Source of the DNA: Streptomyces mobaraensis NBRC 13819 = DSM 40847
Lineage (GTDB): Bacteria; Actinomycetota; Actinomycetes; Streptomycetales; Streptomycetaceae
Direction of reading: 5' to 3'
NCBI RefSeq assembly: GCF_017916255.1
Contig: NZ_CP072827.1
Location: forward strand, 6,039,501-6,103,500
DNA length: 64,000 nucleotides
The notes beneath the pieces were generated by a model. That model saw only the letters and a list, made by a program, of their open reading frames with translations, made no database searches and was not told the origin of the DNA. Shown piece after piece: positions 1 to 23,692 of this stretch. The first letter of the stretch is position 1. Every line of letters starts with the position of its first letter. The position numbers and the translations under genes are program-made.

Positions 1-569
1 CCACTGACCGTGAGTACAGCATTCGCCGGAGCGTAGAACTTCTGCAAGAAATGATCTAGCTGCTGGGGGGTGAGGGTCTCCACCCGGTCGACACCGTATC
101 CGTTATGGGTGTTTTCTGGTGCGTTGAAGGCAATTTCCGAGATCCACATCCAGGGGAACCCGCCGAACGGTTGGCCGTCAATATTGGCCCGGATTTCGTC
201 TTTGACTATCTGGACCTCTCTGCGCATCACGGCAGGTGACGTCTCCTCGACCGACATTCGCTGTGCTTCGAGCCTCAGCAGTGCTCCGACTTCCGCTTTC
301 GGTAGCACTCCGTAGTAGTCGGTGTGGTCGGCCTGGGTGGTGGCGTTCAGCATGCCACCGCTCTGGAGTATGTGGTTGACCTGCGCCTTCGGAACACCGT
401 CCCATAGCACGTGCTCGCAGAGGTGGGCGATCCCGTTGAGGTCCCTGGGCTCTGTACGGAAGCCGACGTCGTAGTGAACGGCGACGCCGACCAAGCCGTG
501 AGCGTCGTATGGATCAAGAACCACTCGCAGGCCGTTGTCGAGTTTCAGTCGTTCGAAGCCACTGGCCAT
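1..569 (-). CDS. M16-family zinc peptidase, N-terminal part (cut by window edge)
   Basis: Read from ATG at 569 leftward, the frame stays open to the window edge (189 codons). It encodes a typical M16 N-terminal domain with the inverted zinc motif HLCEH (His49, Glu52, His53) inside GIAHLCEHVLW. A downstream Glu near 118-125 is the likely third ligand. A GGAGGTG ribosome site precedes the ATG by a few bases. M16 peptidases often trim RiPP leader peptides (the PqqF and AlbF/E types). Divergent from the putative RiPP operon that starts at 684, it is a good candidate maturation protease, though the role is inferred. A partner M16 subunit may lie beyond the window. Confidence 0.9.
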   Translation of the reverse strand, partial: MASGFERLKLDNGLRVVLDPYDAHGLVGVAVHYDVGFRTEPRDLNGIAHLCEHVLWDGVPKAQVNHILQSGGMLNATTQADHTDYYGVLPKAEVGALLRLEAQRMSVEETSPAVMRREVQIVKDEIRANIDGQPFGGFPWMWISEIAFNAPENTHNGYGVDRVETLTPQQLDHFLQKFYAPANAVLTVS

Positions 570-683
570 GGCTGTCACCTCCGGGTGTATCGAGCCAAGT
601 TCCTGTACATGAAACACTCTTGACTCGTTGCTGGCTCCTGCACAAGGTGGCCCAGACATCAAACTGAAAAGCGGAGGGATCAC
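570..683. promoter_or_regulatory. Divergent intergenic region, candidate promoter
   Basis: This 114-nt gap separates the M16 gene (leftward) from the unknown gene at 684 (rightward). It holds a TTGACT box near 622, a plausible -35 for rightward transcription. The same TTGACT word occurs ahead of the precursor peptide. No convincing -10 is visible. Confidence 0.25.
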
Positions 684-1283
684 GTGACGAGCGTCCACGA
701 AAAACCGCTGCTTGCGGGTTCATTGAGGGCCAAGGACATCCAGATGGCCGCCACTGCCGATCTGGACCGGCGTGTCGTGCTCATCAGCGGTGCGATCGAC
801 GTGAACACGCACGACATCGTCGTGACCTTCGAACTGCCGGAACCCGGCAAGTGGCAGATCATCAAGAGTGAGTCGAACCTGACCGATCTGCCTTGGCTCA
901 CCTGGCAGATGACCTGTGACGAACACACCCGCTTCTCTGCCGACAGCGACGCCATGATCGTCTCGCGTCAGTTCGCCAAAACCTTCATGACGCCGGACCA
1001 GGACCGCATCACCTTCTATGACGGTGAAGTCAGGCCGGGTGAGGCGGTGTTGAAGATGTTCACGATCGAGGCTGCTCGACGACGGACGACCATCAACCAC
1101 AACCGGTTCGTTCCCCCGCCCACTGACGTGCCCGGCACGAGTCCTCAACGTCCGGAGCAGCCCACTCAGCCCCGTCCCATCAAACAACAGCTGGAGGAGC
1201 AGATCCGGCTGGTGGTGGAGAACGGGATGCCGCCGCGCCCCGCGATCGAGCTCTACATTCCTGTGACGTCGATCAAGGGATGA
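684..1283 (+). CDS. Hypothetical protein in putative RiPP locus
   Basis: The 199-residue soluble protein starts at GTG 684 behind a clear GGAGGG ribosome site. I recognise no family. There is no signal peptide or membrane segment. Residues up to about 130 look like a compact mixed alpha/beta or beta-rich domain. Residues 135-160 are Pro/Thr/Gln-rich and probably a flexible linker. The last 35 residues form a predicted helix followed by a short strand ending in ELYIPVTSIKG. A strong hairpin follows it, so it is probably a separate transcript or the distal end of one. Its place beside a peptidase, an exporter and modifying enzymes suggests a role in the same peptide pathway, such as a binding or recognition factor. 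That is inference only. Confidence 0.75.
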   Translation: MTSVHEKPLLAGSLRAKDIQMAATADLDRRVVLISGAIDVNTHDIVVTFELPEPGKWQIIKSESNLTDLPWLTWQMTCDEHTRFSADSDAMIVSRQFAKTFMTPDQDRITFYDGEVRPGEAVLKMFTIEAARRRTTINHNRFVPPPTDVPGTSPQRPEQPTQPRPIKQQLEEQIRLVVENGMPPRPAIELYIPVTSIKG

Positions 1284-1291
1284 AGGCTGAT

Positions 1292-1329
1292 GTCCTTCGG
1301 GGGGTGCGAGCAGGCACCCCCCGAAGGAC
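1292..1329 (+). terminator. Strong hairpin after the unknown gene
   Basis: A perfect 16-bp stem (arms 1292-1307 and 1314-1329) closes a 6-nt loop (GAGCAG). It lies directly after the stop codon of the gene ending at 1283 and 15 nt before the MFS start. There is no U-tract, as is common for actinomycete terminators. It could end transcription or attenuate expression of the downstream transporter. Confidence 0.75.
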
Positions 1330-1344
1330 TGACCGAGGACGTGA

Positions 1345-2577
1345 ATGAAGACCGCTTACCTTCACCGCTTTGTTGTTGCCCGCACTGTCTCCATGCTCGG
1401 CGACCGTGCCGCAGAGAGCGCACTGCCGATCATCCTGCTGCTGGTCACGGACGACCCACTGGTAGCCGGGCTGGTCACCGCCTCCAACATTCTCCCCGCA
1501 TTGCTCTTTTCCCTTCCGGTGGGCCACCTTGCTGATACCCGGGAACGCCGCGGGCTCTTGATCACGGCTGATGTGTGGCGGGCGGTTCTGGGGCTTGGGC
1601 TCGCCCTGGTCCTCCTTGCGCCCGAACCTTCCGTCGCGTTGCTGGTCAGCATCACGTTCCTCATGGGATGCGGTGACGTCCTCTTTTCCGTGGCCTCGCA
1701 CACCTATCTGCCTGCGCTTGTCCCGTCGACGCGAATCATGCGTGCCAATACCGCTCTGGAGGCCGGGGACGCGGCGGCTACGCTCACCGGCCCGGCGCTC
1801 GCCGGCGTTCTCGTCTCCCGGTTCCCGCATCCAGTCGCACTGGTGGTGAACGCCGGTTCCTTCGTCGTTTCCGCGGTATTGCTGGCTCGGCTGCCCACCG
1901 CAAGGGCCCCGCATGCCGACGACCACAGGGTAAGCAGCAACTGCCGGACCGCGCGGAGACACGGGGATGTGCTTGCCGGCTTTCGTCTGCTCATCTCCGA
2001 CCCGCTACAACGGATCCTCCAACTGGCTTGTATCTACATGCACCTGGCCGCCGCCCTGTTCGTCCTGGTGATCGTGGCAGTGTCCGTGCAGACACTGCAC
2101 ATCGGGCCTTTCCGTACCGGTCTCGTTCTCTCCGCGGCGGGGGTGGGGGGCCTCATCGTGACCTTGCTGGTTACCCGATTCGTCGAGCACCTCCCTTGGG
2201 GGCTGCTACTCGGCACGGCACTGTGCGGGCTGGCTGCGACCTTTCTGTGGCTGGCCATGGCCCAGGGATTCGTCAGCCTCTTCTTTGCAGCACTGTGCAT
2301 GGATGCATGTTCCGCTTTCGCCTTCGTCACAGCCGGCTCCGTGCGTCAGGTGTTCACTCCCGCTAAGGCGCTCGGGCGGCTCACGGCCGCTGCGGGCCTC
2401 GTCAGCGCAGCCGTGCGTGCCGCGGGCGTCCTGAGCGGCGGTGCTGTCGTGGCTTGGGCGGGTGGCCGTACAGCCGCCGTCGTCCTCGGAGTTATCGGCC
2501 TGGTATGTGCCGTGCCCCTGCTGATGGCCCGGACAGCACGCCGTCCGATCGCGGCCGACGCGACACCTGCGTCCTGA
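1345..2577 (+). CDS. MFS transporter (12 TM)
   Basis: The 410-residue integral membrane protein has about twelve hydrophobic segments and a charged central loop near residues 190-215. It resembles MFS_1/MFS_3 exporters of the enterobactin-exporter/macrolide-efflux kind, with the motif LADTRERRGLL in the loop between helices 2 and 3 (consensus GxLaDRxxRR). The start is ATG 1345 after GAGGACGTGA. It begins a rightward run of genes that continues into the flavoprotein at 2610. In this locus it is a plausible exporter of, or immunity protein for, the modified peptide. The substrate is unknown. Confidence 0.88.
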   Translation: MKTAYLHRFVVARTVSMLGDRAAESALPIILLLVTDDPLVAGLVTASNILPALLFSLPVGHLADTRERRGLLITADVWRAVLGLGLALVLLAPEPSVALLVSITFLMGCGDVLFSVASHTYLPALVPSTRIMRANTALEAGDAAATLTGPALAGVLVSRFPHPVALVVNAGSFVVSAVLLARLPTARAPHADDHRVSSNCRTARRHGDVLAGFRLLISDPLQRILQLACIYMHLAAALFVLVIVAVSVQTLHIGPFRTGLVLSAAGVGGLIVTLLVTRFVEHLPWGLLLGTALCGLAATFLWLAMAQGFVSLFFAALCMDACSAFAFVTAGSVRQVFTPAKALGRLTAAAGLVSAAVRAAGVLSGGAVVAWAGGRTAAVVLGVIGLVCAVPLLMARTARRPIAADATPAS

Positions 2578-2609
2578 CCGCACACGTTCTCTCAGTCCAG
2601 GAGACCCTT

Positions 2610-3917
2610 GTGCCCAGCACCTTCTTCCCCGCGCCGGAGGTCCTCGACAGCCCTCGCGGCCGCCAGTTCACCGGGACCATTCGCCAAGCCCTCGCAATTC
2701 CACGAACCGCGCTACCGCCCAAAGCCTCCGTCGTCATCATCGGTGGTGGACTGGCAGCCCTCACCCTTGCTGCGCAACTGTGGCACCACGGCATACGCGA
2801 CTTCCTCCTGCTGGAACGCGAACCACGCCTTACCGGACGCTTCTTCACCCGGGTCGACAACGTCGGCCAACTGGTGCTGCGCAGCCCTTACGAGCACCAC
2901 CCCGGTGCCGAAGGACACCGGGACTGCGAAATGCTGGATTTCGCCCGGCTGCACTGGTCCCAGTTGACGGAAGTGGAACAACACGAAGTCCGCATGGCGC
3001 AGTCGGGACAACGCGGTGTTGCACCCATCGACATCTTCGAGTCCTACTGCTCCCACGTCGCAGCCTCCCACGGCGTGCCTGAGAGGTCACGGCGAGCAGA
3101 GGTCCTCGAGGTGGCCGGAGCGGATGGAGGGTGGCAGGTCGTCACCGACCGCGGCACCGTTCAGGCTGCGAACGTCGTGTGGGCAGTAGGCGAACCTCGG
3201 CGTCCCGCGCCCCGAACCTGGGACACCAGTTCACCGCGGGTACGCTATTGGGACGAGCCGCAGAACAGTGATGCCCGGAAATCAACACATGCCGTCATCG
3301 GTTCAGGGCTCAGCGCCGCCCACATCGTCCATGATCTGTGTGCTCGCGGTGAACATGTGCAATGGATCTTCCGCGGTAAAGAGCACTACCAGTGTGCCGA
3401 TGTGAACGCCGCTTTCTTCCGCCCGGAAGGCCGGGCGATTTTCACTCAGAGATCACTTGCGTACCGAAGCAGGATGCTCTCGGTGGAGCGTCGTCCGACC
3501 GTCATGTTCGAGTTCCGGCCGCGTCTGCAGGCATGGGAGGAGTCCGGCCGCCTCCGGGTTTTCCGGGAGACCGAGATCGAGTACCTCAAAGACCGCGGTA
3601 CGCACGTCGAGATCGGCCTGGGAGACAGCAGCCCCATAGGAGTGGAGCAAGTCCATCTCGCCCTCGGAACCAAGGCATGCTTCGAGCCCGGACTACGGGA
3701 CACCGAGGTCCAGTTGTACGGCGGACTGCCTCTGGTCCATGAAGAGACCATGGAGCTCGCCGGCACCACCCGACTGTACGTGATGGGAGCACTGGCGTCC
3801 TTGGCGCTGGGCCCGGCGGCACGCAACATCGATGGCCACCGGGTGGCCGCTGCCCGCATCACCACCGCCCTACAGGCTCGAAATGCCGGTGCTGACCAAC
3901 CAGGATCGAACGGCTGA
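2610..3917 (+). CDS. FAD/NAD(P)-binding oxidoreductase, monooxygenase-like
   Basis: The start is GTG 2610, with GGAG about 7 nt upstream; longer in-frame starts overlap the MFS gene and lack a ribosome site. The product is 435 residues. An FAD-binding Rossmann motif (VVIIGGGLAALTLA, residues 41-54) is followed by a second dinucleotide motif (VIGSGLSAAH, middle of the protein). This two-domain layout is typical of class B flavin monooxygenases and ornithine/lysine N-hydroxylases. RSPYEHHPG after the first motif also recalls that group. In flavin N- and S-oxygenases the enzyme uses NADPH and O2. Here it probably oxidises the peptide or a small precursor. The substrate is not predictable. Confidence 0.8.
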   Translation: MPSTFFPAPEVLDSPRGRQFTGTIRQALAIPRTALPPKASVVIIGGGLAALTLAAQLWHHGIRDFLLLEREPRLTGRFFTRVDNVGQLVLRSPYEHHPGAEGHRDCEMLDFARLHWSQLTEVEQHEVRMAQSGQRGVAPIDIFESYCSHVAASHGVPERSRRAEVLEVAGADGGWQVVTDRGTVQAANVVWAVGEPRRPAPRTWDTSSPRVRYWDEPQNSDARKSTHAVIGSGLSAAHIVHDLCARGEHVQWIFRGKEHYQCADVNAAFFRPEGRAIFTQRSLAYRSRMLSVERRPTVMFEFRPRLQAWEESGRLRVFRETEIEYLKDRGTHVEIGLGDSSPIGVEQVHLALGTKACFEPGLRDTEVQLYGGLPLVHEETMELAGTTRLYVMGALASLALGPAARNIDGHRVAAARITTALQARNAGADQPGSNG

Positions 3918-3930
3918 ACAGGACGAGCGA

Positions 3931-4359
3931 ATGATCATCGTGGACTACAAGGGAGCCGAGTCGGCTCTCGAGCCTCAGCTGATCGTGCTGGGAACGGAAA
4001 GCGAACGGATCTTTGCAGCACTGGGCATGACCACCCATCTCCGGAGCCTCGGAGAAGTCATGCTCGGCGCGGAACGAGCCGAGCACACCGGCTCATGGTC
4101 CCTGAACTGGATGGAGGCGGTAGAGCGCGGCATTCACTTCTGGGAGACCTTCCGCAATCGATTCACCTCTGCCCGCTTGGACGGCATCCGTCGCAACGGA
4201 GCACCCAGGGAGAACCTGGCTCGTTGCGGGACGGCTGTTGCCACCGAGCTCGGTCTGCCCGCCGATGACCCACTCGTGGCACTGCTGGCCGTCGCAATGA
4301 TCCGCCGCGAGGAGTTCGACGACTACGTCCAGAAGAATGCGAAGGGAGCACGCACGTGA
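3931..4359 (+). CDS. Hypothetical protein, 142 aa
   Basis: The start is ATG 3931, 13 nt after the flavoprotein stop, with GGACGAG as a modest ribosome site. The 142-residue soluble protein is mostly helical and has no signal peptide. I do not recognise a family. A run with several Trp and His residues (SWSLNWMEAVERGIHFWETF) may form a ligand pocket or interface. Its stop codon overlaps the start of the JmjC gene (GTGA at 4356-4359), so the two are translationally coupled and may form a complex. Function is unknown; an accessory or substrate-binding role is only a guess from the operon position. Confidence 0.7.
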   Translation: MIIVDYKGAESALEPQLIVLGTESERIFAALGMTTHLRSLGEVMLGAERAEHTGSWSLNWMEAVERGIHFWETFRNRFTSARLDGIRRNGAPRENLARCGTAVATELGLPADDPLVALLAVAMIRREEFDDYVQKNAKGART

Positions 4360-5228
4360 GGTACCGGGGAAACCCACCAACACTGGAGCTGTCCGACGCC
4401 TTTTACGCACGCTACTGGGAACGCGGCCCAGTGCACGTTCGCAACGCTGCCCCAGGGAGATTCAAGGAGCTCTTCGACACTGCAGCCTTCGAAGAACTCT
4501 TGGACTTCGGAGCACTGCGCTCAGGTTTCGTCACCGTCATCCACCAAGGCCGGCCCGTGGCCGCAGAACTGCTCTGCCGTGAACCCCAGGACGTGGGCGG
4601 AGTTGAGCACGACGACCTCGTCGACCCGCAGGCGCTGACTCCCTACCGCGAGCAAGGCGCAACGATCATCCTCGCCTGCCTCCAGCTGTACTCCCGGCAA
4701 GTGGCGGGACTCGCTCAACGGCTGTCGGATGCCATGAGGTGCGACGTAGAGGCGCACGCATTCCATACACCGGCCAGCACTCACGGCCTGGCTCCGCATT
4801 TCGACGGTGAGCCCGGGTTCCTCCTGCAGCTGGAAGGAAGCAAGCACTGGACCCTGCATCCGCCACTCACCGACGGGCTGCCAATTCAAGGCGGCCACCC
4901 GCCGATCGACTGGCAGCCAGATGAAACCCTGACCCAGCGGTTCACTGTAGAGCCGGGTGACCTCCTGTACCTTCCTCGAGGCTGGGTCCACTATGCCGAT
5001 ACCACGGAACAGCACTCCCTCCACATAACATTCCAAGCGCTGCTCAACCTCGAACGAGACGTGATCCTTGATCGTGTCGAACGCGAAGTGGACGAGGCTG
5101 TACGCAAGGAGGACGTCCTGCCGGTGGTCCCCGAAGACGGACCGTCGGCCTTGGCTGCCCATGTCCGGGTGATATCAGCGAAGTTGGCTGCATGGGCCGA
5201 TGAACTGGAGGGCGCCGGGCCCGAGTAG
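4356..5228 (+). CDS. JmjC/cupin-type 2-oxoglutarate Fe(II) oxygenase
   Basis: This 290-residue enzyme has the JmjC (cupin-4 / ribosomal oxygenase-like) fold signature. The metal ligands are His148-x-Asp150 in LAPHFDGEPGFLLQLEGS and His212 in YLPRGWVHYADT. Lys164 in the strand GSKHWTLHPP is a likely 2-oxoglutarate contact. The region around residues 230-290 is helical, like the dimer or winged-helix parts of bacterial RoxA-type proteins but shorter. Such enzymes hydroxylate protein side chains (Arg, His, Asn, Asp) using O2 and 2-oxoglutarate. Beside a precursor peptide it is a candidate peptide hydroxylase. Its start overlaps the preceding stop. Confidence 0.88.
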   Translation: MRYRGNPPTLELSDAFYARYWERGPVHVRNAAPGRFKELFDTAAFEELLDFGALRSGFVTVIHQGRPVAAELLCREPQDVGGVEHDDLVDPQALTPYREQGATIILACLQLYSRQVAGLAQRLSDAMRCDVEAHAFHTPASTHGLAPHFDGEPGFLLQLEGSKHWTLHPPLTDGLPIQGGHPPIDWQPDETLTQRFTVEPGDLLYLPRGWVHYADTTEQHSLHITFQALLNLERDVILDRVEREVDEAVRKEDVLPVVPEDGPSALAAHVRVISAKLAAWADELEGAGPE

Positions 5229-5619
5229 CGATCCGGCACGGCCTTTGCTGTGGTCACCACAAGGTGGGGCTGGCCCTTGGGCCAGGAGCAGATCTGAGTT
5301 CTGGCGTTACCGACAGCGCCCAACACCGCAGGAATTGAAGAGCCGATACTGTCGATCAGGTTAAGGGGCACACCTGCTGGTGAGAGTCAATCGGCCAGTA
5401 TTTAGATTGACAGGTAAGTGTTCCGGTGGTCTGCAAGGAATATTGGCCCGATCCCTTTCGGCTGACACCTTGACTATGTGTCGGTATTGCTTAACCCTGG
5501 GGTGGGTCGGAGTGCCGTGTCCATGAGCGGAAACGGAATTTTCGTTGCAGCAACGGCGAATCCGGCAAATGGTGAGTCACGTAGGCCACGCTATTCCAAC
5601 TGCACTAGGAGGAGATTCC
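5229..5619 (+). promoter_or_regulatory. 391-nt intergenic region before the precursor gene
   Basis: No credible gene lies here. A TTGACT box at 5470-5475, with TAACCC at 5492-5497 (16-nt spacer), is a weak promoter candidate for the precursor gene. A GGAGGAG ribosome site ends the region. A short minus-strand reading stretch at about 5230-5371 has protein-like composition but no recognisable family. It may be a decayed fragment. Confidence 0.35.
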
Positions 5620-5787
5620 ATGAGCGAGAAAGGTGTGGAGCGGGACGACTTCGACAGTCTCGTTGCCAGCGTCTCGGCGAAGGTGACTGCCGAGCAGGTT
5701 GAGGAAGCCCAACGCGTGTCCCAGGCCCTCTCCGAATCACCGTCGGAGTTCGGCCCAGTCGTCATGTTCGCATTGGACAAGAACTGA
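5620..5787 (+). CDS. Putative RiPP precursor peptide, 55 aa
   Basis: ATG 5620 follows a near-perfect ribosome site (AGGAGGAG), the strongest in the region, as expected for a highly translated peptide. The 55-residue product has a charged, helix-forming N-terminal part (residues 1-38, rich in Glu, Asp, Val, Ala and Gln). The C-terminal tail, SEFGPVVMFALDKN (residues 42-55), is different: hydrophobic, with a Gly-Pro turn. That leader/core layout is characteristic of RiPP precursors. There is no Cys and no double-Gly site, so it is not a lanthipeptide or sactipeptide. Oxidisable core residues include Asp53, Asn55, Phe44, Phe50, Met49, Pro46 and Lys54. A hairpin separates it from five downstream genes. 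The assignment is by context and composition, not homology. Confidence 0.7.
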   Translation: MSEKGVERDDFDSLVASVSAKVTAEQVEEAQRVSQALSESPSEFGPVVMFALDKN

Positions 5788-5795
5788 TTGATCCC

Positions 5796-5826
5796 CGAGT
5801 CGTCCGCCCATCGGGCGGACGACTCG
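5796..5826 (+). terminator. Hairpin after precursor gene (attenuating terminator)
   Basis: A perfect 14-bp stem (5796-5809 and 5813-5826) with a 3-nt loop lies 8 nt after the precursor stop codon. A partial terminator here would make much precursor mRNA and little enzyme mRNA, a known arrangement in RiPP operons. The next gene begins only 16 nt later. Confidence 0.8.
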
Positions 5827-5842
5827 CCGGCCCTCGGGAGCA

Positions 5843-6730
5843 GTGTTGATCAGCACGCATGGATTGCCAGCAGTTCTCGAAACGCTGTCCGTGCTCGTTG
5901 CCTCGGACGGAACTCCCTCGGACGCCGTACCGGCGGGCTCCGCTGCCGGGCGGCTGGCGTGGCTGTGGCAGCAGTACATGCGCCGGCTCGAACCGGCGGT
6001 CCCCACGCTCGACACCGACCTCGGCGCACTTCCGGTCCACATCGGCGACACTCCCCAGGGGCAAGCCCTGCTGGACGCCTTCCACCGGGCTTGTGCCGCG
6101 GACAGTGTCTCGTACGAACGGCCACGCTACACGGCGGAGGATGCGAACCAGCTGATCCGATCCTCTGAGCAGGTATCGGACGCCCTCGACGGCTTGGCCT
6201 CTGCCTGGCCCGAAGTGCGAACGCTGTACGGGCTGCTACTTCCGATCGTGGTGCTCGCCCCATCGCGCAGCCTGGCCGGGGGGACCGCGAGCAGTTTGCC
6301 AGGGGTGCTGTGGGCCTCGGTCACACCGGCATGGACCCGGACCGATGTGCAGGAATTCCTTTTGCATGAGCTCGTGCACACCACTCTCTTCCTTGAGGAA
6401 CGCCGGTACGGCTTCTACCGCAACATGCGTCTGCTGCTCGACGAAGAAAACCTCACACCGAGCGCCATCAGGACAGATCGAAGGCCGTTGGACAAGGTCT
6501 TCCACAGTATCGTGGTAGCGACTGAGATCCTTCTGGCCAGAATCCGACTAGGAACGTCCTCTCATTCGGGTGACTCACTGCATCCGGACAGTGAAATCCT
6601 CCGGGAGAACGCACTGACCAGCATCAGGGCGGTGCAGAAATTGGACACGAGCAGGCTCCTGACGTCACGGCCGATCGAGATAATGGAAAAATGCCGGACC
6701 CATCTTCAGCAGATGGTTCCGTTCCGTTAA
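5843..6730 (+). CDS. HExxH putative peptide-modifying oxygenase, paralog 1
   Basis: This 295-residue protein starts at GTG 5843 (or TTG 5846) behind GGGAG. It shares with its two downstream neighbours an N-terminal block ending in a LxVLAS-type motif, a central HExxH motif in LLHELVHTTLFLEERRYG (His175, Glu176, His179), and RPLDKVFHSIVVATE with His221 and Glu228. This layout, including RPL-x-xVxHSxVxAxE, resembles the mod_HExxH family (TIGR04267, now alpha-ketoglutarate-HExxH peptide beta-hydroxylases) more than a metalloprotease. The family hydroxylates Asp, His or other residues in RiPP precursors, with the His residues binding iron. The similarity is distant, so a protease cannot be excluded. 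No signal peptide is present. Confidence 0.72.
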   Translation: MLISTHGLPAVLETLSVLVASDGTPSDAVPAGSAAGRLAWLWQQYMRRLEPAVPTLDTDLGALPVHIGDTPQGQALLDAFHRACAADSVSYERPRYTAEDANQLIRSSEQVSDALDGLASAWPEVRTLYGLLLPIVVLAPSRSLAGGTASSLPGVLWASVTPAWTRTDVQEFLLHELVHTTLFLEERRYGFYRNMRLLLDEENLTPSAIRTDRRPLDKVFHSIVVATEILLARIRLGTSSHSGDSLHPDSEILRENALTSIRAVQKLDTSRLLTSRPIEIMEKCRTHLQQMVPFR

Positions 6731-6739
6731 GGAGTTTTC

Positions 6740-7597
6740 ATGTACAGCCTGGTGGGCGCTCGCGCGATCACGGAGAACCTGGTGGTGCTCGCGTCGGCCG
6801 ACGGCACGCCGCCACCTCGCACGCTCAGCGAGCTGCGGACCGCCTTCCGTCGGCGGATGTATTCCTCTCGAAAGGGCTCCCCAGCGTCAATGGCCGCATT
6901 GTCGGCAGAACCGGTCGGCAATGGGGAGAGAGAGCCAAGGATCGTCGCCGGTGGAGACGAGCTGCGCAGCCTCGTGCATGGATTCGACTTACCGCGGCAC
7001 AGCAGTGACGACGTGATACCGGCTCCCGGATGGCGTGTCGAGAAGGTCGTTCTCGGCTGGCGCCAGCTATGCATGCTGGACGACACGCTTGGCGGCCTGG
7101 CGGAGGTCGTAGTCGACACTGTGTTCGTGGCCGGTGCTGGTTGGACGGGCTCGATGTCGAACAACAAGCACATTGGGGTCCTTTGGCTCATGCCCGGCCG
7201 TGAGTGGCGGAACGAGGAGGTCGTCGAAGCGTTTCTGCATGAGATCACCCACACGACGCTGTTTCTCGACGAACGCCGCTACGGCCACTTTCTGCCTGCG
7301 GCCGCTGACGTGCGCGTACGCTCCGCCATCCGGCAAGATGTCCGGGAGTACCCGGCAGTTGTGCACAGCACCCTGGTTGCGGCCGAGCTCCTGGCCTGGC
7401 GTGAGCGGCACAGCACTCCGGACATCGCCTGTCGCAGGCTGCACGGACCGACCAGGGAGCTGACGGCACGGGCTCAAGAGGCGCACGCGCAGATTGTGGC
7501 AGAAGACCTGCGACGAGGACTGCTTACACCTCGGATGCGTGAACTCGTCGAGGAGGCCGGAGAGCGGATCCGTATCAGCGCCGCATCATCGGCCTGA
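6740..7597 (+). CDS. HExxH putative peptide-modifying oxygenase, paralog 2
   Basis: ATG 6740 follows AAGGAG and lies 10 nt after the first paralog. The product has 285 residues. Conserved blocks are NLVVLAS near residue 13, FLHEITHTTLFLDERRYG with His167, Glu168 and His171, and VVHSTLVAAELL with His209 and Glu216. The spacing from HExxH to the downstream His is 38 residues, against 42 in paralogs 1 and 3. Outside the motifs the three proteins have diverged strongly. That suggests old duplication and separate target residues rather than recent copying. The predicted reaction is iron- and 2-oxoglutarate-dependent hydroxylation of the precursor peptide. Confidence 0.72.
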   Translation: MYSLVGARAITENLVVLASADGTPPPRTLSELRTAFRRRMYSSRKGSPASMAALSAEPVGNGEREPRIVAGGDELRSLVHGFDLPRHSSDDVIPAPGWRVEKVVLGWRQLCMLDDTLGGLAEVVVDTVFVAGAGWTGSMSNNKHIGVLWLMPGREWRNEEVVEAFLHEITHTTLFLDERRYGHFLPAAADVRVRSAIRQDVREYPAVVHSTLVAAELLAWRERHSTPDIACRRLHGPTRELTARAQEAHAQIVAEDLRRGLLTPRMRELVEEAGERIRISAASSA

Positions 7598-7656
7598 TAT
7601 GGCGAGCAAGGTCCCACGTTCCCTTGATCCCTGCCACCGATGGTGAGGACGTCATC

Positions 7657-8493
7657 GTGTACTACACCAGCGGGTTCCACGAGTGTCTGAGTAACCTGGT
7701 TGTCCTGGCCAGCACCCGGATGAACGGTGCCGTCCGCACCGAGCAGGACCTCGCCACGGGCCTACGGAACTTCATCGCAGCCACCAACACCACCCAGGCG
7801 GCCCCCGGGCCTCTGCACATCGTGGACGACGAGGACCGGCTTCGCACCCTGGCCCGGCAGTTCGGTCGCGAACCTGCAGACAGAAGACGGAAGTTGGCTG
7901 CACTCCCCGAGATGGTGGAACTGTTCCAGGACGCTTTGAATATCCTGCCCCCGCAGGCGCAGCGCCTCTTTCGCCTATTGGTGACCGAGGTTGCCCTGTT
8001 TGACAGCGAAGTGGTCGTCCCCGGCAGCGGAGCACTGGTAGAGCAGGTGGGTTCCATCTACATCGCCGTAGGGGCTGACTGGACAGCCTCCGACGTGGCC
8101 GAGTGTCTTGTCCACGAGATGACTCACCTGTTGTTGCGCTGCGACGAGCATCGCTACGGCCACTACGTCAACCCTGCTGACGCCGTGCGAGAGCAGAAGT
8201 TTAGTCGGACCGCCGTATCCTTGACCCAGCGGTCACCCATGGTTGCCTTTCATAGCTTGGTCGTGGCGGCCGAGATCATGGGCCTGCGCTCGCAACTGCG
8301 CGGCGGAAATCGCAACTCCCCGGCAGGGGGCGCCCATGGGCCCGACAAACTGCTGGTTCATCGGGCTCTGCAATGCGCGGACGAACTCCTGCAACGGACC
8401 GATCGGGACAATCACTACCGTGAGCGCGCCATCGTCCTCATGGAACACGCCGCCACCGGGCTCCGCTCGGCCCTCCCCGAAATGGCTCTCTGA
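7657..8493 (+). CDS. HExxH putative peptide-modifying oxygenase, paralog 3
   Basis: I chose GTG 7657 because it has GAGG about 8 nt upstream and aligns the N-terminus exactly with paralog 2; an in-frame TTG at 7624 is an alternative. The product has 278 residues. It contains NLVVLAS (residues 13-19), ECLVHEMTHLLLRCDEHRYG (His153, Glu154, His157) and AFHSLVVAAEIMGLR (His199, Glu206). The invariant xxRYGxY after the HExxH motif is shared by all three paralogs and marks them as one subfamily. It lies 2 nt before the 2-oxoglutarate oxygenase gene and is surely cotranscribed with it. The role is inferred, as for paralog 1. Confidence 0.72.
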   Translation: MYYTSGFHECLSNLVVLASTRMNGAVRTEQDLATGLRNFIAATNTTQAAPGPLHIVDDEDRLRTLARQFGREPADRRRKLAALPEMVELFQDALNILPPQAQRLFRLLVTEVALFDSEVVVPGSGALVEQVGSIYIAVGADWTASDVAECLVHEMTHLLLRCDEHRYGHYVNPADAVREQKFSRTAVSLTQRSPMVAFHSLVVAAEIMGLRSQLRGGNRNSPAGGAHGPDKLLVHRALQCADELLQRTDRDNHYRERAIVLMEHAATGLRSALPEMAL

Positions 8494-8495
8494 TC

Positions 8496-9293
8496 ATGCA
8501 GGTATCGCACAAAGGAAGCCGGTTCGTCGTTCTCGACGAGATTCTCGACCCGGCGAGTGAGTCCGCCATGTGGGCCTGGTTCCAGACTCAGTCATTCGGC
8601 ATCAGCGTACCCGGCAACTGGGGACGTCGCCCGTTCGACGGGGTCGGAGCCTATGCAAGCCCCTCTCTGGTCATCGATGCCTCCGCACCGCCGGCCGAAT
8701 TGTTGGGACGAACGCTCCTGAAAGCTGCGCAGCTGGCGCAGGACGTGGTCGGTGTGCCAGGAAAGGACTGGCGCGCCGTCAGCCGAACCTGTTGGACGTA
8801 TCCGGCTGGCGCACAACTGAGTTGGCACAATGACAGTGCTGGTGATCAGACGGGCGCGTACGTCTGGTACGTTCATCCGCAATGGGGCGCCTCCTGGGGA
8901 GGCGAGCTGCTCATCGTAGACGAGCCGGCGTCCCAACTGGTCACCAGGGCAATCGAGTCCGGGCTGGTCCGCCCTGGGGAAACCGAGTCCCCACTTGCCT
9001 CCGAAGCCGAGTCGAAAGTGCTGTTCAGTGCTCTTGATCCGGTGTGCGTTCAGGCTCGGCCCAACCGTATGGTTTTGCTCATGCGAGACACCTTCCACAC
9101 GGTGCGACGAGTCGACACTTCCGCAGGAGACCGCTCGCGTTGCTCGGTGGCCGGCTTCTTCCTGACGATGGACGGAGCAAGTCAAGTGGCCAATGAAGAG
9201 CAGCAGTCCAGGTCGACGACTGGTACTGCAGGCCTTTCGAGTCAACTGGCAGCACATCAGAGGGCTGAGGGTCGGCCGGTACAGCGTGGCTAA
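8496..9293 (+). CDS. 2-oxoglutarate/Fe(II) oxygenase, prolyl-hydroxylase-like
   Basis: This 265-residue protein has the double-stranded beta-helix oxygenase signature of the 2OG-FeII_Oxy_3 (prolyl 4-hydroxylase-like) group. The motif is His111-Asn-Asp113 in SWHNDSAGDQTG, with distal His201 in RDTFHTVRRV and Arg215 in RSRCSVAGF for 2-oxoglutarate. The segment WYVHPQWGASWGGELLIVDE is the typical strand pair after HxD. The start ATG 8496 overlaps nothing and has no clear ribosome site, so coupling to the preceding gene (stop at 8493) is likely. It is a third type of oxygenase acting in one small locus, presumably hydroxylating the same precursor. The C-terminal 40 residues look disordered. Confidence 0.85.
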   Translation: MQVSHKGSRFVVLDEILDPASESAMWAWFQTQSFGISVPGNWGRRPFDGVGAYASPSLVIDASAPPAELLGRTLLKAAQLAQDVVGVPGKDWRAVSRTCWTYPAGAQLSWHNDSAGDQTGAYVWYVHPQWGASWGGELLIVDEPASQLVTRAIESGLVRPGETESPLASEAESKVLFSALDPVCVQARPNRMVLLMRDTFHTVRRVDTSAGDRSRCSVAGFFLTMDGASQVANEEQQSRSTTGTAGLSSQLAAHQRAEGRPVQRG

Positions 9294-10545
9294 CCCCTCC
9301 GGCGGTTCCTACCGCGAAGTGTTGAGTCGCCACGCCGCCCGGCACTTGCTCGCGGCGGCAGGGCTGGCACGGCTGTCCATGGGGATGGTGGGACTTGCAC
9401 TGGTGCTCTCGGTCCGCGAAGCGACGGGGTCGTTCGCCGCGGCCGGCTTCGCGGCGGGCGCCTTCGCCCTGACCGCTGGGGTATTGGCGGCAGTACGTGG
9501 ACGGTTGATCGATCTCAAGGGCCACCGTCGCGGACTGTGGGTCCTGGGCGCCGGGTACGCCCTCGTGGGCTGTGTCCTCCTGGTACTCGTGATCACGGCG
9601 CAGAATCCGGTTGCCCTGATCGCGGCCTCGGGGATGCTGGGAGCCGTTGCCCCTCCGGTATCGGCCGCAACGAGGACTGCATGGGCTGACATGGTTGGCC
9701 GTGGACCGCTCCTGTCGACAGCCCTGTCGCTCGACACGGTAACGGAGGAACTGCTCTCCCTCGTAGGACCGGTCATCACCGGGTTCCTCGCCGCGACAGG
9801 AAGCCCGGTGATTGCTCTCACCGTAGCGATCGGCCTTGAGGTGCTGGCGGTGGGACTGTTTCCTGGCGGATCGATGCGCACCGCCGCGGCTCCCACCACC
9901 ACGACTGGGCGCGAGGGGCGGCGGCTGCACAGTTCGCTCCGGGTACTGATCGCTGCGGGCCCGGCACTCGTTCCCCTGCTGGCGGTGGGCATAGGTTTCG
10001 GCATACTCGACGTGGCGGTCCCTGCCCTGGCTCTACAGCATGGAGGCACGGCGTCGGCGGGTTGGATGTTGGCGCTCCTGCCGGCCGGTAGCACCCTGGG
10101 TGGCCTCTTCTATGGACATCGCACGTGGTCGTCTCCGCTTGCGAAGCGCTACAGATGGCTTTGCCTCATGTTGGCTGTCGGCTTTGCCCCTTTGCCTCTC
10201 ATGGCCTGGGAACCGTCGGCATTGCCGCTGTTGTTCGTCGCGGGCTTGGTCGTCGCGCCTACGGTCGTTACGTGCTACCTGTTGGTGGACGAGGTGACCC
10301 CGGACGGCCGGAAGACGGAAGCAGCCACATGGGTCAGCACTTTCAACAACACAGGGACAGCCGCCGGGTCAGCCCTTTCTGGAGCTCTCGTTGCCGGTTT
10401 CCCGCTGGTGGTGGTCTTCACCCTGCCGGCTGTTGCCGTGACCGCCACCACGCTTGGCATGGTGCTGTGGCAGTGGCACCCGGCGCGGAGTGGAGCCGCG
10501 AGCGGGTCGGTCGTACGACCGGTGCGGGTGCCCCGCCGTCACTAG
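9286..10545 (+). CDS. MFS transporter, second in locus
   Basis: The product is about 419 residues with roughly twelve hydrophobic helices. GTG 9286 overlaps the end of the oxygenase gene by 8 nt and has GAGGG upstream. An in-frame ATG at 9193 would add 31 residues and overlap by about 100 nt, which is less likely. The sequence resembles drug/peptide-efflux MFS proteins rather than sugar importers. It is unlike the MFS at 1345, so the locus has two exporters, perhaps one for the product and one for immunity. Nothing resembling the operon follows before the IS element. Confidence 0.82.
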   Translation: MANPSGGSYREVLSRHAARHLLAAAGLARLSMGMVGLALVLSVREATGSFAAAGFAAGAFALTAGVLAAVRGRLIDLKGHRRGLWVLGAGYALVGCVLLVLVITAQNPVALIAASGMLGAVAPPVSAATRTAWADMVGRGPLLSTALSLDTVTEELLSLVGPVITGFLAATGSPVIALTVAIGLEVLAVGLFPGGSMRTAAAPTTTTGREGRRLHSSLRVLIAAGPALVPLLAVGIGFGILDVAVPALALQHGGTASAGWMLALLPAGSTLGGLFYGHRTWSSPLAKRYRWLCLMLAVGFAPLPLMAWEPSALPLLFVAGLVVAPTVVTCYLLVDEVTPDGRKTEAATWVSTFNNTGTAAGSALSGALVAGFPLVVVFTLPAVAVTATTLGMVLWQWHPARSGAASGSVVRPVRVPRRH

Positions 10546-10989
10546 CCTCGCTGTTTCGGTTGGGCTCGGTTGAGCGCTGTCCCAGCGATGGCCGGCGAGG
10601 GGTGGCCGGTAGGGCGGGCCACTGGGCTGTCCGTCAATGCTGGTCGCGGGTGGACGAGCAGTCAACTCATCGTGATCCTGTCCAGAGCAGGTTCAGTGCC
10701 GGTTCGGACGAGGATTTCCGGAAGTGGTCGGGGCATGCGGTTGTGCTGGGGGCGGTGGGACGGTTGCGTGGCACTGTTCCGGGCGGGGGTCTGACTCATG
10801 ACTTCTTTGACCGAAGTGTCTTGTCACAGACATGTCGACTGTCGTTGCGGGATGGTGCCTGCTGTCACCGAGCCACAGGGCGTGTCCCAATAGGGGCCTT
10901 GCCGTCTTTCAGGCGCCGTCACGGTTCAGACCGCCCGGCCAGGCAGGTGCCAGCCACCCAGCACATCACCATGTGGGAGGCGGACCACC
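10546..10989. other. Non-coding gap upstream of the IS110 transposase
   Basis: These 444 nt contain no credible gene. The right part (from about 10890) should be the left end of the IS110 element. In this family that end encodes the bridge RNA that guides target choice. I cannot fold or align it here. The left part shows nothing recognisable and may be island debris. Confidence 0.4.
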
Positions 10990-12103
10990 ATGACGACCAG
11001 ACAGCGCAGCACTTCCTCCACCAGCACAGGCCCGCCTGCTCGGGACGAGGTCGTCCTGGGTGTGGACACGCATGGCGAGGCTCATGTCGCCGCAGTGGTC
11101 TGCCCACTGGGCCAGGTCCTGGGCACCAAGTCCTTTCCGGCCACAGCGGTCGGCTACCGTCAGCTGCTCGCCTGGGCCCGCAAGTTGGGCACGGTGCGCC
11201 GGGCCGGGGTGGAGGGCACCGGTACCTTCGGCGCGGGCTTGTCCCGCTACCTGCTGGCGCAGCACGTAGCGGTGTTCGAGGTGAACCGGCCCGACCGCTC
11301 GGCCCGCCGTCTGCTCGGGAAGTCAGACCCGCTCGACGCGCAGGCCGCCGCGCGGGCCGTGCTCAGCGGTCGCGCCCGGGCGCGGGCAAAAACTGGCAAC
11401 GGTCCGGTGCAGAGCGCCCGGATGTTCAAAGTCGCCAAGGATTCCGCGGTCAGGGCCCGTACCCAGGCGATCAACCAGCTCAAGGCCGTCCTGGTCGTAG
11501 CCGACCCGGCCCTGCGGGAACGACTGTCCGGCCTGGGCAACCGCGAACTGTTCCGCACCTGCGCACGCCTCGGCCCGCGCGAGGGTGAGGTCGGCGGGGG
11601 CGATGAGGGCACCGTAACTGACGCCACCCTCATTGCACTGAGTATGCTGGCTCAGCGCATCGAGCAGCTCACCGGACAGATCGATGAGCTGAATCAGCGA
11701 CTGACCGGGCTCGTTGAACGCCATGCCCCGCAGCTGCTCGCGCCGGTCGGCATCGGCCCGGACTCCGCTGCCACGCTCCTGATCACCATGGGCGACAATC
11801 CCGAGCGGCTGAGCACCGAGGCATCCTTCGCTGCCCTGTGCGGAGTCAGCCCCATCGAGTACTCCTCGGGCGGTCGGAGCTCGCACCGGCTCAACCATGG
11901 TGGCGACCGGCAGGCGAACGCCGCTCTGCACCGGATCGTGTTCACCCGGCTGCGCCACGACCCGCGCACCCAGGCGTACTACGAACGCCGCACCCAGGAG
12001 GGCAAAACCCGTCGTGAGATCATCCGATGCCTCAAGAGATATGCCGCCCGCGAGGTCTTCAACCTGGTCAGGGCGGTGTCTACCAACCCCCCGTTATAGG
12101 GGC
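10890..12103 (+). mobile_element. IS110-family insertion sequence, boundaries provisional
   Basis: The transposase gene is intact. IS110 elements lack clear terminal inverted repeats, so ends are hard to see. The 8-nt word ATAGGGGC occurs at 10890-10897 and again at 12096-12103, overlapping the transposase stop codon. It could mark the two recombined core sites. The element would then be about 1.2 kb. The left non-coding end would be only about 93 nt, short for a bridge RNA, so the true left boundary may be further out. Confidence 0.4.
10990..12099 (+). CDS. IS110-family transposase (recombinase)
   Basis: The 369-residue protein starts at ATG 10990 behind GGGAGG. It has the N-terminal DEDD RuvC-like domain: Asp in VLGVDTHGEAHV, Glu in AGVEGTGTFG, and Asp residues in KSDPLDAQAAAR. 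The C-terminal Transposase_20 domain follows, with LLAPVGIGPDSAATLL and SGGRSSHRLNHGGDRQANAA and its catalytic Ser region. The length is normal for the family and no frame is broken, so it could be active. IS110 transposases act with a bridge RNA from the element end to insert at chosen sites without target duplication. Its stop codon lies 30 nt before the pcaL start. Confidence 0.95.
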   Translation: MTTRQRSTSSTSTGPPARDEVVLGVDTHGEAHVAAVVCPLGQVLGTKSFPATAVGYRQLLAWARKLGTVRRAGVEGTGTFGAGLSRYLLAQHVAVFEVNRPDRSARRLLGKSDPLDAQAAARAVLSGRARARAKTGNGPVQSARMFKVAKDSAVRARTQAINQLKAVLVVADPALRERLSGLGNRELFRTCARLGPREGEVGGGDEGTVTDATLIALSMLAQRIEQLTGQIDELNQRLTGLVERHAPQLLAPVGIGPDSAATLLITMGDNPERLSTEASFAALCGVSPIEYSSGGRSSHRLNHGGDRQANAALHRIVFTRLRHDPRTQAYYERRTQEGKTRREIIRCLKRYAAREVFNLVRAVSTNPPL

Positions 12104-12131
12104 GTCCGTGACAGATGAGAGGGTCTGGCGG

Positions 12132-15100
12132 GTGACTGAGACACCGGCGAACACCCTGCAATACCGCTCTGACGGGCCAGAAGACGCCCCAGTCCTGGTA
12201 CTGGGGCCGGCGTTGGGTACCACATGGCACATGTGGGACCGGCAGGTGCCGGAACTGACCCGGCAGTGGCGCGTCTTCCGCTACGACCTCCCGGGCCACG
12301 GCGGCGCGCCCGCCCGCCCGGCGGCCACGGTCGGCGAGCTCGCCGACCGGCTGCTCGCCACCCTCGACGCCCTCGGCGTCGAGCACTTCGGCTACGCGGG
12401 CTGCTGCATCGGCGGTGCGATCGGCGCCGACCTCGCCCTGCGCGGCCCGGAGCGGCTCGGCTCCCTCGCCCTGATCGGGTCGGCCGCCCGCTTCGGCACG
12501 GCGGACGGCTGGGGCGTACGGGCCTCCGAGGCGCGCTCCCACGGCCTGGACCCCGCGGCGCGGTCCGCGCCCGAGAACTGGTTCAGCCCCGCCTTCGCCG
12601 CGGCCCAGCCCGCCATAGTGGACTGGGCCGTCCACATGGTGCGCACCACCGACGTCCCCTGCTACTCCGCCGCCTGCGAGGCGCTGGCCGCCTTCGACGT
12701 CCGCTCCGGCCTCGAACGGGTGGGCGTGCCCACGTTGGTGCTCGTCGGCGCCGAGGACCAGGTGACGCCGCCCGCCGACGCCCGCGTCCTGGTCGCCGGC
12801 ATCCACGACGCCCGCCTCGCCGTCGTCCCCGGCACCCGCCACCTCGCCCCCGTCGAGCAACCCGCCGCCGTCACCGACCTGCTGGTGAACCACTTCACGG
12901 CGGACTGGCACCGGCCGGGGGTCGCTCGGCGGGGACGCGGCCCGGGCCCCGGTACGCCGCCGCCCGCGCCCACCGCTCCGGCAGGGGCGGGCGAGCGTTC
13001 CGCCGGTGGTTCGCCCGGCGGTCCCTTTGCGGGTAGTCCTGCCGGTCAGCCGGACGTCAGCGGACCGGGTATGCCGCCCACCGGTGGTGCGTCCGGTGGG
13101 GCGGGCGTGCACGCAGGCCCCTCCGTCGGCCCGTCGTCGGGTTCCCCGGCCTCGTCCGGCGGCCCCTTCGCGGGTGGTGCGGGTGGTCCTGCCGGTCTGC
13201 CGGAGCCCAGTGGGTCGGGTGTGTCTTCCCCTGGGGGTGCGTCCGGTGGGGCGGGCGTGCACGCCGGCCCGTCTTCGGTTCCTCCGGTCACGCCCAATGG
13301 ACCGTCGGAGGCCGGCGACGCCGGTCAGTCGAAGCAGAGCGGGTCGGGTGGGCCCTCCGTCGGGGGCGCGCCCGGCGGTTCGGGCGTGCGTGCCGGTCTC
13401 TCCTCGGGTGCTTCGGGTGTTTCCACCGGCCCCTCTTCGGTTCCTCCGGTCATGTCCGGCGGCCCCTTCGCGGGCGGTCCTGCCGGTCTGCCGGACCTCA
13501 GCGGGTCGGGTGGGCCGTCCGCCGGGGGTGCGCCTGCCGGTCCGGGCCCGGCCGGTCAGGGGGTACGCGGCGGCGGCCCGTCTCCCGCCGGCGCGGGCGC
13601 GCCCGCCGGTTCGTCGCCCGCCGGCTCGTCGTCCGGTGCTCCCGCCGGCTCGTTCGCGGCCGCGCCTGCCGCGCCGCCAGGCGTGGTTTCCGGTGACGCG
13701 CCGACGGCGCTGTTGCCGCCGATCGTGCTGGAGGACGGGCCGGTGCCGTCCGCCGCCTTCGCCGAAGGGCCGCCGGAGGGCTGGCCTCCGCCGCGGGCCG
13801 CCGACGCGCCACAGGGCGTGTTCGGCCCGCCCCCGGCGAACGGAGTACCGGATTCCGCCCCGGATCCGGCTCCGTTCGGCACGGCGCCCGGGCCCTTCGG
13901 TCCCGTCGACGGCCGGCGGCCGACCGCGCCCGGGGCGGCCCACGGGCCGGAAGCCATGCTCCGCAACGGCACGTTGCGCGCCGACGTCTTCGGCCCCCCG
14001 GCGGGCCCGCCGGTCGACAGCCCGTACGCCGCCCCTGCCCCGACCTCCGTTCCCGGCTGCTCGGCCGAAGGGCCGGCCGACGCGGCTCCTCAGGGCACGC
14101 CGACGGCGTACGGCCCGCCTGCGGAAGCCGCCGCTCCGGGGGCGAGTGGCTTCGGACCGTTCCCGGGCCCGTCCCCGGCCCCCGCCACCGACGGTCGTAC
14201 CGAACGCTTCGGTCCCTCGTCCCTGCCCGGCTTCGGACACGGCGTCACCGGCCCGACGGCCCCGGCTTCCCAGGCGGGCGCGCCGGGTGCCGAAGTCCCG
14301 TACGGGACTGTGGGATTCGGCTCTCCGGCCGGCGGCCTCACCTCCCTGGAGGAGGGAGCGCCCTCCACGGCCCGGCCCGCGGCGGGCCCTTCCGCGGGAA
14401 CCGGTGCCACAGGCGCGGACGCGGCGGCATCCCAGACGGAGCGGCCCGGACAGGACGGCCCCGCCCGGGTGGACGTACCGACGACGGACATGTCCGCGCT
14501 GTCCACGCCCACTTCGGCGAGCCACCGCGAGGCCGCTGAGAAGGGGATCGGTGAGGCGGTGGCCGGTTCCGCGCGGGTGGACGTGCCCACGACCGACATG
14601 TCCGCGCTGTCCGCGCCGAGTTCGACGCGCCGTCCCGGGGCCCGGACCGGCGGGAACCACAGGACGATGACGGCGGAGACCGGCGATGCGGCACGGGTGG
14701 GCTCGGCCGGTGAGACCGGCGTGGACGTGTCCGCCGCTGACCCGTCCCCGGCGGGCGAGCGGACGCCGACGCGCCGTCACGACGGCGTCGGGGCGGGTGC
14801 CGACAAGGCGACGGCGCCGGGTTCCGGCCGCGTGGATGTGCCGACGACCGACATGTCGGTGCTTCCCGCTCCTGGCTCGGCGGCGGCTGTCGGCGACGCG
14901 CCCGGTGCGGGTGGCTCCGCCTCGGACGCTGCTCGCGTGGATGTGCCCACGACGGACATGTCGGCGCTCGCCGCGCCTGGTTCTGCGGCGGTTGTCGATG
15001 GGGCGCCTGGTGCGGGTGGTTCCGCTTCGGGTGCCGCCGGGGTGGATGTGCCGGGGGCGGACATGTCCGCGTTCGCCGCGCCTCGTTCGGTGGCGGCTGC

Positions 15101-16415: not shown

Positions 16416-16436
16416 CCCCAGCGCCATCATGGAGAC

Positions 16437-17081: not shown

Positions 17082-17155
17082 CCTCCAAGCCCGTGCAGTC
17101 ACCCCTCCCACCTGCGAAAACGGGCGTTGTCAGACCCTCCCGTTAGGGTGGCCGC

Positions 17156-17935: not shown

Positions 17936-18068
17936 ACGACCTCGACCAGACGACCTCGACGTCCGCCGTCCCGGGTGCTCGGCCGATCCGGGCACCCGGC
18001 CGATCGGGCGCCCGGGCCCTGTCGCCGCGACCACGCCCGAAGCCGGACGGACGGACGACCCGGCTCGC

Positions 18069-18518: not shown

Positions 18519-18525
18519 GATCACG

Positions 18526-18556
18526 AAGCTAGGACCTCAAGTGCGGTTGAGGGCAA
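18526..18556 (-). promoter_or_regulatory. MerR/SoxR-type promoter ahead of marR
   Basis: On the minus strand TTGCCC (18551-18556) and TAGCTT (18526-18531) are 19 bp apart, the over-long spacing that MerR-family activators such as SoxR correct by twisting DNA. The overlapping 18-bp dyad CCTCAAGTGCGGTTGAGG (18535-18552) matches the SoxR-box form CCTCAAG-N4-(C)TTGAGG at the outer positions. The -10 lies about 7 nt from the ATG. Confidence 0.65.
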
Positions 18557-18764
18557 GGCCGGTGTCGACGCCGACGCACCGCGCCACGCACCGCCGCCCG
18601 CACCCTCGTCGACGACGGCCGAGTGGGCCGCGCTGCTCTGGGGCGGCCCCCCACCCCGGAGGAGCCGACGGCCGGCGGCGGTGCGGCACTCGCCGGCGCG
18701 AGTGCGGCGCCCGGCCCCGCCGCCGGCGCCTCCCGGGACGAGCGCCGCACCGAGCCGACCGCTG
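18557..18764. other. Intergenic region between marR and the GDSL hydrolase
   Basis: This region separates the marR promoter from the end of the leftward GDSL hydrolase gene. It is high-GC and holds no gene I can support. It presumably contains the hydrolase transcription terminator. Confidence 0.4.

Positions 18765-22948: not shown

Positions 22949-23692
<744 letters not shown>

What the first reader, a model, noticed from the sequence alone, without database searches (positions are those of the whole stretch)
1..10545. Oxygenase-rich putative RiPP locus of a type I do not recognise
A 55-aa precursor-like peptide is surrounded by a JmjC oxygenase, three HExxH proteins, a 2-oxoglutarate/Fe(II) oxygenase and a flavin monooxygenase-like protein, plus two MFS exporters and an M16 peptidase. 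No class-defining RiPP enzyme (LanM, radical SAM, YcaO, ATP-grasp) is present. Six possible oxygenases for one short peptide would suggest a densely hydroxylated product. The link between peptide and enzymes is by context.
Basis: partly seen in the sequence, partly recalled or inferred. Interest (0 to 1): 0.88.

Follow-up and report, generated by a model that had tools for sequence, protein, structure and literature searches.

The report
Small peptide with three HExxH hydroxylases
A soil-bacterium gene cluster that appears to make a small peptide whose tail is oxidised by three copies of a recently recognised iron enzyme; the peptide belongs to an apparently undescribed family that shares one short tail motif in very different bacteria, while two of the six oxygenases first counted probably belong to a neighbouring, separate gene set.

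The parts
5620..5787 (+). 55-aa precursor peptide gene; C-terminus FGPVVMFALDKN with the M-[FIV]-A-x-D motif at residues 49-53
   Evidence: RBS AGGAGG; orthologue in S. milbemycinicus, dN/dS well under 1; relatives with the motif; no Pfam or NCBIfam match
5797..5825 (+). stem-loop between precursor and first HExxH gene, possible attenuator or mRNA stabiliser
   Evidence: sequence; conserved with two two-sided base changes in S. milbemycinicus; z -4.2 against dinucleotide shuffles; hairpins with z -3.2 or lower in 6 of 7 loci tested
5843..6730 (+). H1, aKG-HExxH-type peptide beta-hydroxylase (HELVH at residue 175, His221)
6740..7597 (+). H2, aKG-HExxH-type peptide beta-hydroxylase (HEITH at 167)
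   Evidence: TIGR04267 85.6 bits; motif positions
7624..8493 (+). H3, aKG-HExxH-type peptide beta-hydroxylase (HEMTH at 164); exact start uncertain
   Evidence: TIGR04267 75.4 bits; motif positions
8496..9293 (+). 2OG-Fe(II) oxygenase (HND at 111, further His at 201)
   Evidence: PF13640 and PF13661 over cut-off; residues; 85% identical gene at the same place in S. milbemycinicus; no relative in the PDB by sequence at E 0.1
9286..10545 (+). MFS2, probable exporter of the peptide; ORF opens at 9193, start at 9286 inferred
   Evidence: PF07690; 76% identical in S. milbemycinicus; sequence of the start region
726..1283 (+). DUF6423 protein, neighbouring module A (ORF from 684; start inferred)
   Evidence: PF19987 8.9e-61; 65% identical in G178
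1345..2577 (+). MFS1, neighbouring module A
   Evidence: PF07690; 37% identical in G178
2595..3917 (+). flavin monooxygenase-like protein, module A (ORF from 2454; start inferred)
   Evidence: PF13738 4.5e-16; in the same gene row as DUF6423 in G178 and next to it in five further sampled genomes
3931..4359 (+). DUF6187 protein, module A (start inferred)
   Evidence: PF19685 1.6e-10; after the flavoprotein in G178 and five further genomes
4356..5228 (+). JmjC_2 oxygenase, module A (HFD at 148)
   Evidence: PF08007 2.2e-22; NO66/MINA-like in the PDB by sequence; beside DUF6187 in G178
3..698 (-). M16 peptidase, start of the gene (continues outside the window; second M16-type gene beyond it), module A
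   Evidence: PF00675 and PF05193; the second gene matches PF05193 only; both have relatives in G178

Best explanation
Window 5620-10545 is a compact RiPP operon: precursor, three aKG-HExxH hydroxylases, one canonical 2OG-Fe(II) oxygenase and an MFS exporter. The N-terminal part of the 55-aa peptide acts as leader. The HExxH enzymes oxidise C-H bonds in the conserved C-terminal core around M-phi-A-x-D (here FGPVVMFALDKN). H1, whose relatives stand alone in single-enzyme clusters of other phyla, acts on the invariant M-phi-A-x-D part. H2, H3 and the 2OG oxygenase add further hydroxylations. The product is trimmed and exported. Genes 3-5228 are a different conserved biosynthetic module set beside it. 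Shown: gene content, family membership, predicted fold of H1, recurrence of peptide with enzyme, the motif, and that the two modules occur apart. Inferred: leader/core division, which residue each enzyme attacks, export, and that the product is hydroxylated at all.
Against: No chemistry was measured. The motif was defined on the same loci used in the control, and the profile favours sequences that carry it; 7 of its 20 hits were in the profile or near-copies. P0016 lacks the motif and P0020 is weak (E 2.9). In the Acinetobacter peptide the Asp position is Glu. The 17 at 39-48% identity (P0031-P0047) have none; small ORFs may be unannotated, but their surroundings could not be read. The third HExxH of G322 scores under the family cut-off (34.2 against 40), and the third of G322 and of G181 have Gln at the place of His221. 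No M16 match lies in the S. milbemycinicus stretch held, so its trimming peptidase is unknown.
Confidence: 0.77

Rival explanations
1. At least one HExxH enzyme (most likely H1) oxidatively cleaves the backbone at the invariant Ala of M-phi-A-x-D by alpha-carbon hydroxylation, leaving a C-terminal amide (...FGPVVMF-NH2), while the other enzymes beta-hydroxylate the residues before it. This refines the best explanation and does not exclude it.
For: PosC cleaves at the Ala of ARMD; there small residues (Ala, Gly) led to alpha-hydroxylation and cleavage, larger ones to beta-hydroxylation, and the motif need not be at the very end (PMC12636437 sections 11 and 13). The Ala is kept in all 8 rows of A2 and 19 of 20 of A4, and in the Acinetobacter peptide, while the tail after it varies in length and sequence.
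Against: Analogy only; Met is as conserved as Ala and Asp nearly so, so the motif may be a recognition element; PosC itself was not compared with H1 here.
Confidence: 0.35
2. All six oxygenases act on the one peptide; module A was added to module B in this strain and extends the product.
For: The two blocks are adjacent on one low-GC stretch, with 391 bases between JmjC and peptide. JmjC and HExxH enzymes meet in biphenomycin clusters, and HExxH with two M16 peptidases in nitrilobacillin clusters (passages of PMC12707348, PMC12257519, PMC13060819).
Against: In the 392 genomes searched with both, only the own genome matched DUF6423 and H1. The S. milbemycinicus draft gave no match to DUF6423, DUF6187 or JmjC. 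G181 and G077 gave no JmjC match at 1e-5, and G322 only a weak one (E 3.3e-6) on another contig. Module A genes occur in G178 and partly elsewhere without the peptide.
Confidence: 0.13
3. The HExxH proteins are ordinary zinc proteases that trim the peptide.
For: HExxH is a zincin motif; PflC shows proteolytic activity when the leader is absent (abstract of PMC12636437).
Confidence: 0.06
4. The 55-aa ORF is a regulatory leader ORF before a hairpin attenuator, not a product precursor.
For: A strong hairpin follows it in 6 of 7 loci tested.
Against: Selection acts on the amino acids, most of all residues 18-54; the C-terminal motif is conserved across phyla.
Confidence: 0.04

Closest known systems
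aKG-HExxH peptide beta-hydroxylases (TIGR04267; ChlBH, PflC/PosC, BipH/BpmH, PesO)
   Same: Family model, HExxH motif, predicted fold of H1
   Different: Three paralogues in a row, without MNIO or radical SAM partner among the locus genes; precursor with M-phi-A-x-D tail
pfl/pos RiPPs of Pseudomonas (PMC12636437)
   Same: HExxH enzyme plus precursor with a conserved C-terminal motif that contains Ala
   Different: No MNIO-nitroreductase fusion or GNAT; tail is MxAxD, not a Gln run before ARMD; no family match for the peptide
Biphenomycin clusters (PMC12707348, PMC12257519)
   Same: HExxH hydroxylase; a JmjC protein is nearby in this genome
   Different: No MNIO, B12 radical SAM, arginase or TldD among the locus genes; JmjC here belongs to the separable module A
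Nitrilobacillins (PMC13060819)
   Same: HExxH hydroxylase; two M16 peptidases near
   Different: No MNIO or asparagine-synthetase-like enzyme among the locus genes; M16 pair goes with module A

Membership tests
aKG-HExxH peptide beta-hydroxylase (TIGR04267) | score over the curated cut-off of 40 bits | tested here: met
   H1 93.0, H2 85.6, H3 75.4
aKG-HExxH peptide beta-hydroxylase (TIGR04267) | HExxH metal motif | tested here: met
   HELVH, HEITH, HEMTH
aKG-HExxH peptide beta-hydroxylase (TIGR04267) | ChlBH-type fold | tested here: met
aKG-HExxH peptide beta-hydroxylase (TIGR04267) | Fe(II)- and aKG-dependent oxidation of a peptide | not testable with these tools
   needs enzyme assay
RiPP | genetically encoded precursor next to and conserved with its modifying enzymes | tested here: met
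RiPP | modified and processed product | not testable with these tools
   needs mass spectrometry
Biphenomycin-type RiPP | MNIO and B12-dependent radical SAM in the cluster | tested here: not met
   no such match among the locus genes given to Pfam and NCBIfam
pfl/pos-type RiPP | MNIO-nitroreductase fusion and C-terminal ARMD | tested here: not met
   no such gene; C-terminus is MFALDKN
Nitrilobacillin-type RiPP | asparagine-synthetase-like nitrile synthetase and MNIO | tested here: not met
   no such match among the locus genes

The most novel reading that the evidence does not exclude
A phylum-spanning RiPP class defined by the stand-alone H1-type aKG-HExxH enzyme and an M-phi-A-x-D tail, in which the invariant Ala is the site of oxidative backbone scission to a C-terminal amide, elaborated in some actinomycetes into tandem hydroxylase sets (three HExxH, in two genomes also a 2OG oxygenase) that oxidise the residues before it.
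Probability: 0.3. Interest if true: 0.78.

Novelty: new variant of a known kind. Interest (0 to 1): 0.62.

Why it matters
The aKG-HExxH enzymes were recognised as oxygenases only recently, and in the cases met in the papers read here they come with an MNIO or radical SAM partner. Here they seem to be the main modifying enzymes, with a precursor family that no Pfam or NCBIfam model matched in the member tested, and a sharply conserved tail that makes the reaction site predictable. Single-enzyme versions offer a minimal two-gene system to test what the enzyme does, and the triple version to test how paralogues divide the work. It also corrects gene-cluster reading: neighbouring oxygenases need not serve the same peptide.

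Tried and rejected
A second precursor for module A was looked for by eye in the ORF lists of the JmjC-to-peptide gap and of G178 downstream of JmjC and none stood out. Rfam gave nothing over its gathering scores in window 1-12000; no sigma-70-like promoter or T-tailed terminator by the consensus scan of 5200-5900; no tRNA in L001. The tree of HExxH paralogues puts H2 and H3 of the four triple clusters in one group (98/99) but does not resolve H2 from H3 (66/43, 63/59), and the H1 rows do not form one group; so one ancient triplication is possible but not shown. Broader sampling with H1 at E 1e-15 gave only one further genome (G420, two HExxH genes): 2 of 394 genomes of the class and 2 of 120 relatives, own genome counted in each. 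Literature: ten searches of the held open library listed no paper whose title or shown start of abstract describes an M-phi-A-x-D precursor or tandem HExxH sets; DUF6423 and DUF6187 had 0 papers. Subscription papers, among them the ChlBH paper (seen only as a reference), were not read.
Full report
Observation. The window is bases 6039501-6103500 of a 7.57 Mb single-contig genome. Its genus is most likely Streptomyces: G322 and G077, told as same genus, have contigs of the lengths listed for Streptomyces sp. SID12501 and A1136 (inference). Window 1-10000 has GC 0.62-0.65 and the 2.5 kb before it 0.63-0.66, against 0.70-0.78 in the flanks (L001 11000-14999, window 12001-24000). An IS110-family transposase follows at 10990-12099. 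This looks like acquired DNA. Added by me: DUF6423, DUF6187 and a second M16-type gene just outside the window.

The peptide. The 55-aa ORF 5620-5787 follows ctAGGAGGagattcc-ATG. Its orthologue in S. milbemycinicus (78%) differs at 9, 7 and 20 sites in codon positions 1, 2 and 3; dS 0.77, dN 0.16, and dN 0.07 over residues 18-54. A 29-base stem-loop after the stop codon (5797-5825) keeps its pairing in S. milbemycinicus through two two-sided changes; z is -4.2 and -3.2 against dinucleotide shuffles. Hairpins in the same place reach z -5.7, -6.1, -6.1 and -4.1 in G322, G181, G077 and Acinetobacter, but -1.1 in Photorhabdus. The Aerophobetes gap is too short to test.

Recurrence. The single genome-collection scan, with H1, returned four loci. 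S. milbemycinicus has peptide, H1, H2, H3, 2OG oxygenase and MFS2 at 76, 82, 81, 81, 85 and 76%. In 392 genomes of the genus, H1 matched in 11 at E 1e-10 or better, own genome included. Of the other ten, G322 and G181 have three HExxH genes in a row with an MFS gene and a small peptide gene before them, and G077 has one HExxH with a peptide gene. The other seven have one H1 match each of another sort; five of their loci show a peptide ending in MMGGW plus a short tail, and two (L104, L107) showed none with the filter used. Photorhabdus (two loci with the same peptide), Ca. Aerophobetes and an Acinetobacter plasmid have one HExxH gene in the stretch held, with a small peptide gene before it.

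The motif. The eight aligned precursors share only Met1, Met49, Ala51 and Asp53 of the window numbering; the Acinetobacter peptide, found later, has Glu at the last place. A profile search of 5.8 billion proteins gave 20 hits up to E 10. Nineteen of 20 end in M[FIV]AxD plus 0-3 residues; the exception is P0016. Hits bear names of Streptomyces, Kitasatospora, Nocardia, Photorhabdus and Xenorhabdus. P0001-P0004, P0006 and P0011 were in the profile (P0002 with one residue changed) and P0005 is a near-copy, so 13 are new and 12 of these carry the motif; the profile favours such hits. Contig lengths (363961, 6871, 2546 and 772994 bases) pair precursors P0010, P0013, P0007 and P0002 with H1 relatives P0027, P0029, P0023 and P0022 (inferred). 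The other 22 of the 26 H1 relatives P0022-P0047 do not pair in this way. As control, among 4,423 distinct ORFs of 25-100 aa in the loci then held and the window, 7 match M[FIV]A.D within 4 residues of the end, and all 7 are the precursor genes; a looser pattern adds only the Acinetobacter peptide. The pattern was drawn from the same loci, so this gives background frequency, not an independent test.

Two modules. G178 carries M16a, DUF6423, MFS1, flavoprotein, DUF6187 and JmjC homologues in the order and orientation of window 3-5228, with the second M16 relative beyond. JmjC was searched in the same 392 genomes: 144 matched at 1e-10, and in the rows shown none besides the own genome is above 38% identity. 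DUF6423 occurs in 7 of 392 genomes, and all six besides the own genome have the flavoprotein and DUF6187 in the same gene row. A Salimicrobium plasmid has DUF6423-MFS-flavoprotein plus a 115-aa protein. The S. milbemycinicus draft gave no match to DUF6423 or DUF6187 at 0.001 or JmjC at 1e-5; nothing rang at all, but the same family model rang in 7 genomes. In one search, G181 and G077 had no JmjC match and G322 only one at 3.3e-6 on another contig. Among the 392 genomes only the own one matched both DUF6423 and H1. Thus peptide plus HExxH persists without module A, and module A without the peptide.

Mechanism. Papers seen in part show what the family does. ChlBH beta-hydroxylates Asp and His; PflC and PosC beta-hydroxylate Gln and cleave oxidatively at the Ala of ARMD to leave an amide; PesO hydroxylates Pro; BipH hydroxylates late in biphenomycin biosynthesis. 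I therefore take residues 44-55 as core, H1 as the enzyme of the invariant motif, and H2, H3 and the 2OG oxygenase as further hydroxylases. The invariant Ala with a variable tail after it resembles the PosC case and leads to the testable mass change of -542.27 Da plus 15.995 per hydroxylation. None of this was shown here.

Novelty. The enzymes are known; the precursor family, the tandem triple set and the lack of an MNIO or radical SAM partner were not met in the ten literature searches of the held library (listed under Tried and rejected), which lacks most subscription papers. I therefore rate it a new variant of a known kind.

Noticed in passing
L101 8791-8967, L102 10255-10626 (end of the ORF, - strand), L103 9374-9598, L105 8966-9109, L106 9023-9193: Small peptides ending in MMGGW plus a short tail (CMMGGWTS and the like) directly before a single stand-alone HExxH gene in five of seven loci examined; a second possible HExxH precursor family.
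   Followed up: partly
L001 2295-9088 (8-15 kb before the window): A YcaO gene with a TfuA-related one (under its NCBIfam cut-off) and, on the other strand, a SagD-like YcaO with a TOMM leader-binding domain: an azole- or thioamide-type RiPP cluster close by.
   Followed up: partly
window 684-5228; L032, L046-L050, L111, L113: Conserved unknown operon DUF6423, flavoprotein, DUF6187, with MFS, JmjC, M16 pair or a CMD-family protein in some loci, seen in Streptomyces and in divergent form in Salimicrobium.
   Followed up: partly
window 12027-16415: 1462-aa ORF: alpha/beta hydrolase at the N-terminus, carboxymuconolactone decarboxylase at the C-terminus, joined by about 1000 low-complexity residues.
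   Followed up: partly
L114 (G420): Two HExxH genes on opposite strands around a tryptophan-halogenase-like gene, with methyltransferase-like, MFS-like and B12/radical-SAM-like ORFs by eye; no MxAxD peptide found.
   Followed up: partly
L035 11742-13121 and L110 5877-7217: Single-HExxH clusters of Photorhabdus and Acinetobacter each carry a gene for a hydrophobic protein with a C-terminal ATP-binding part, perhaps a divergent ABC exporter.
   Followed up: no
one search hits H3, H5, H6: HExxH peptide-modification genes on staphylococcal plasmids; seen in the listing only.
   Followed up: no
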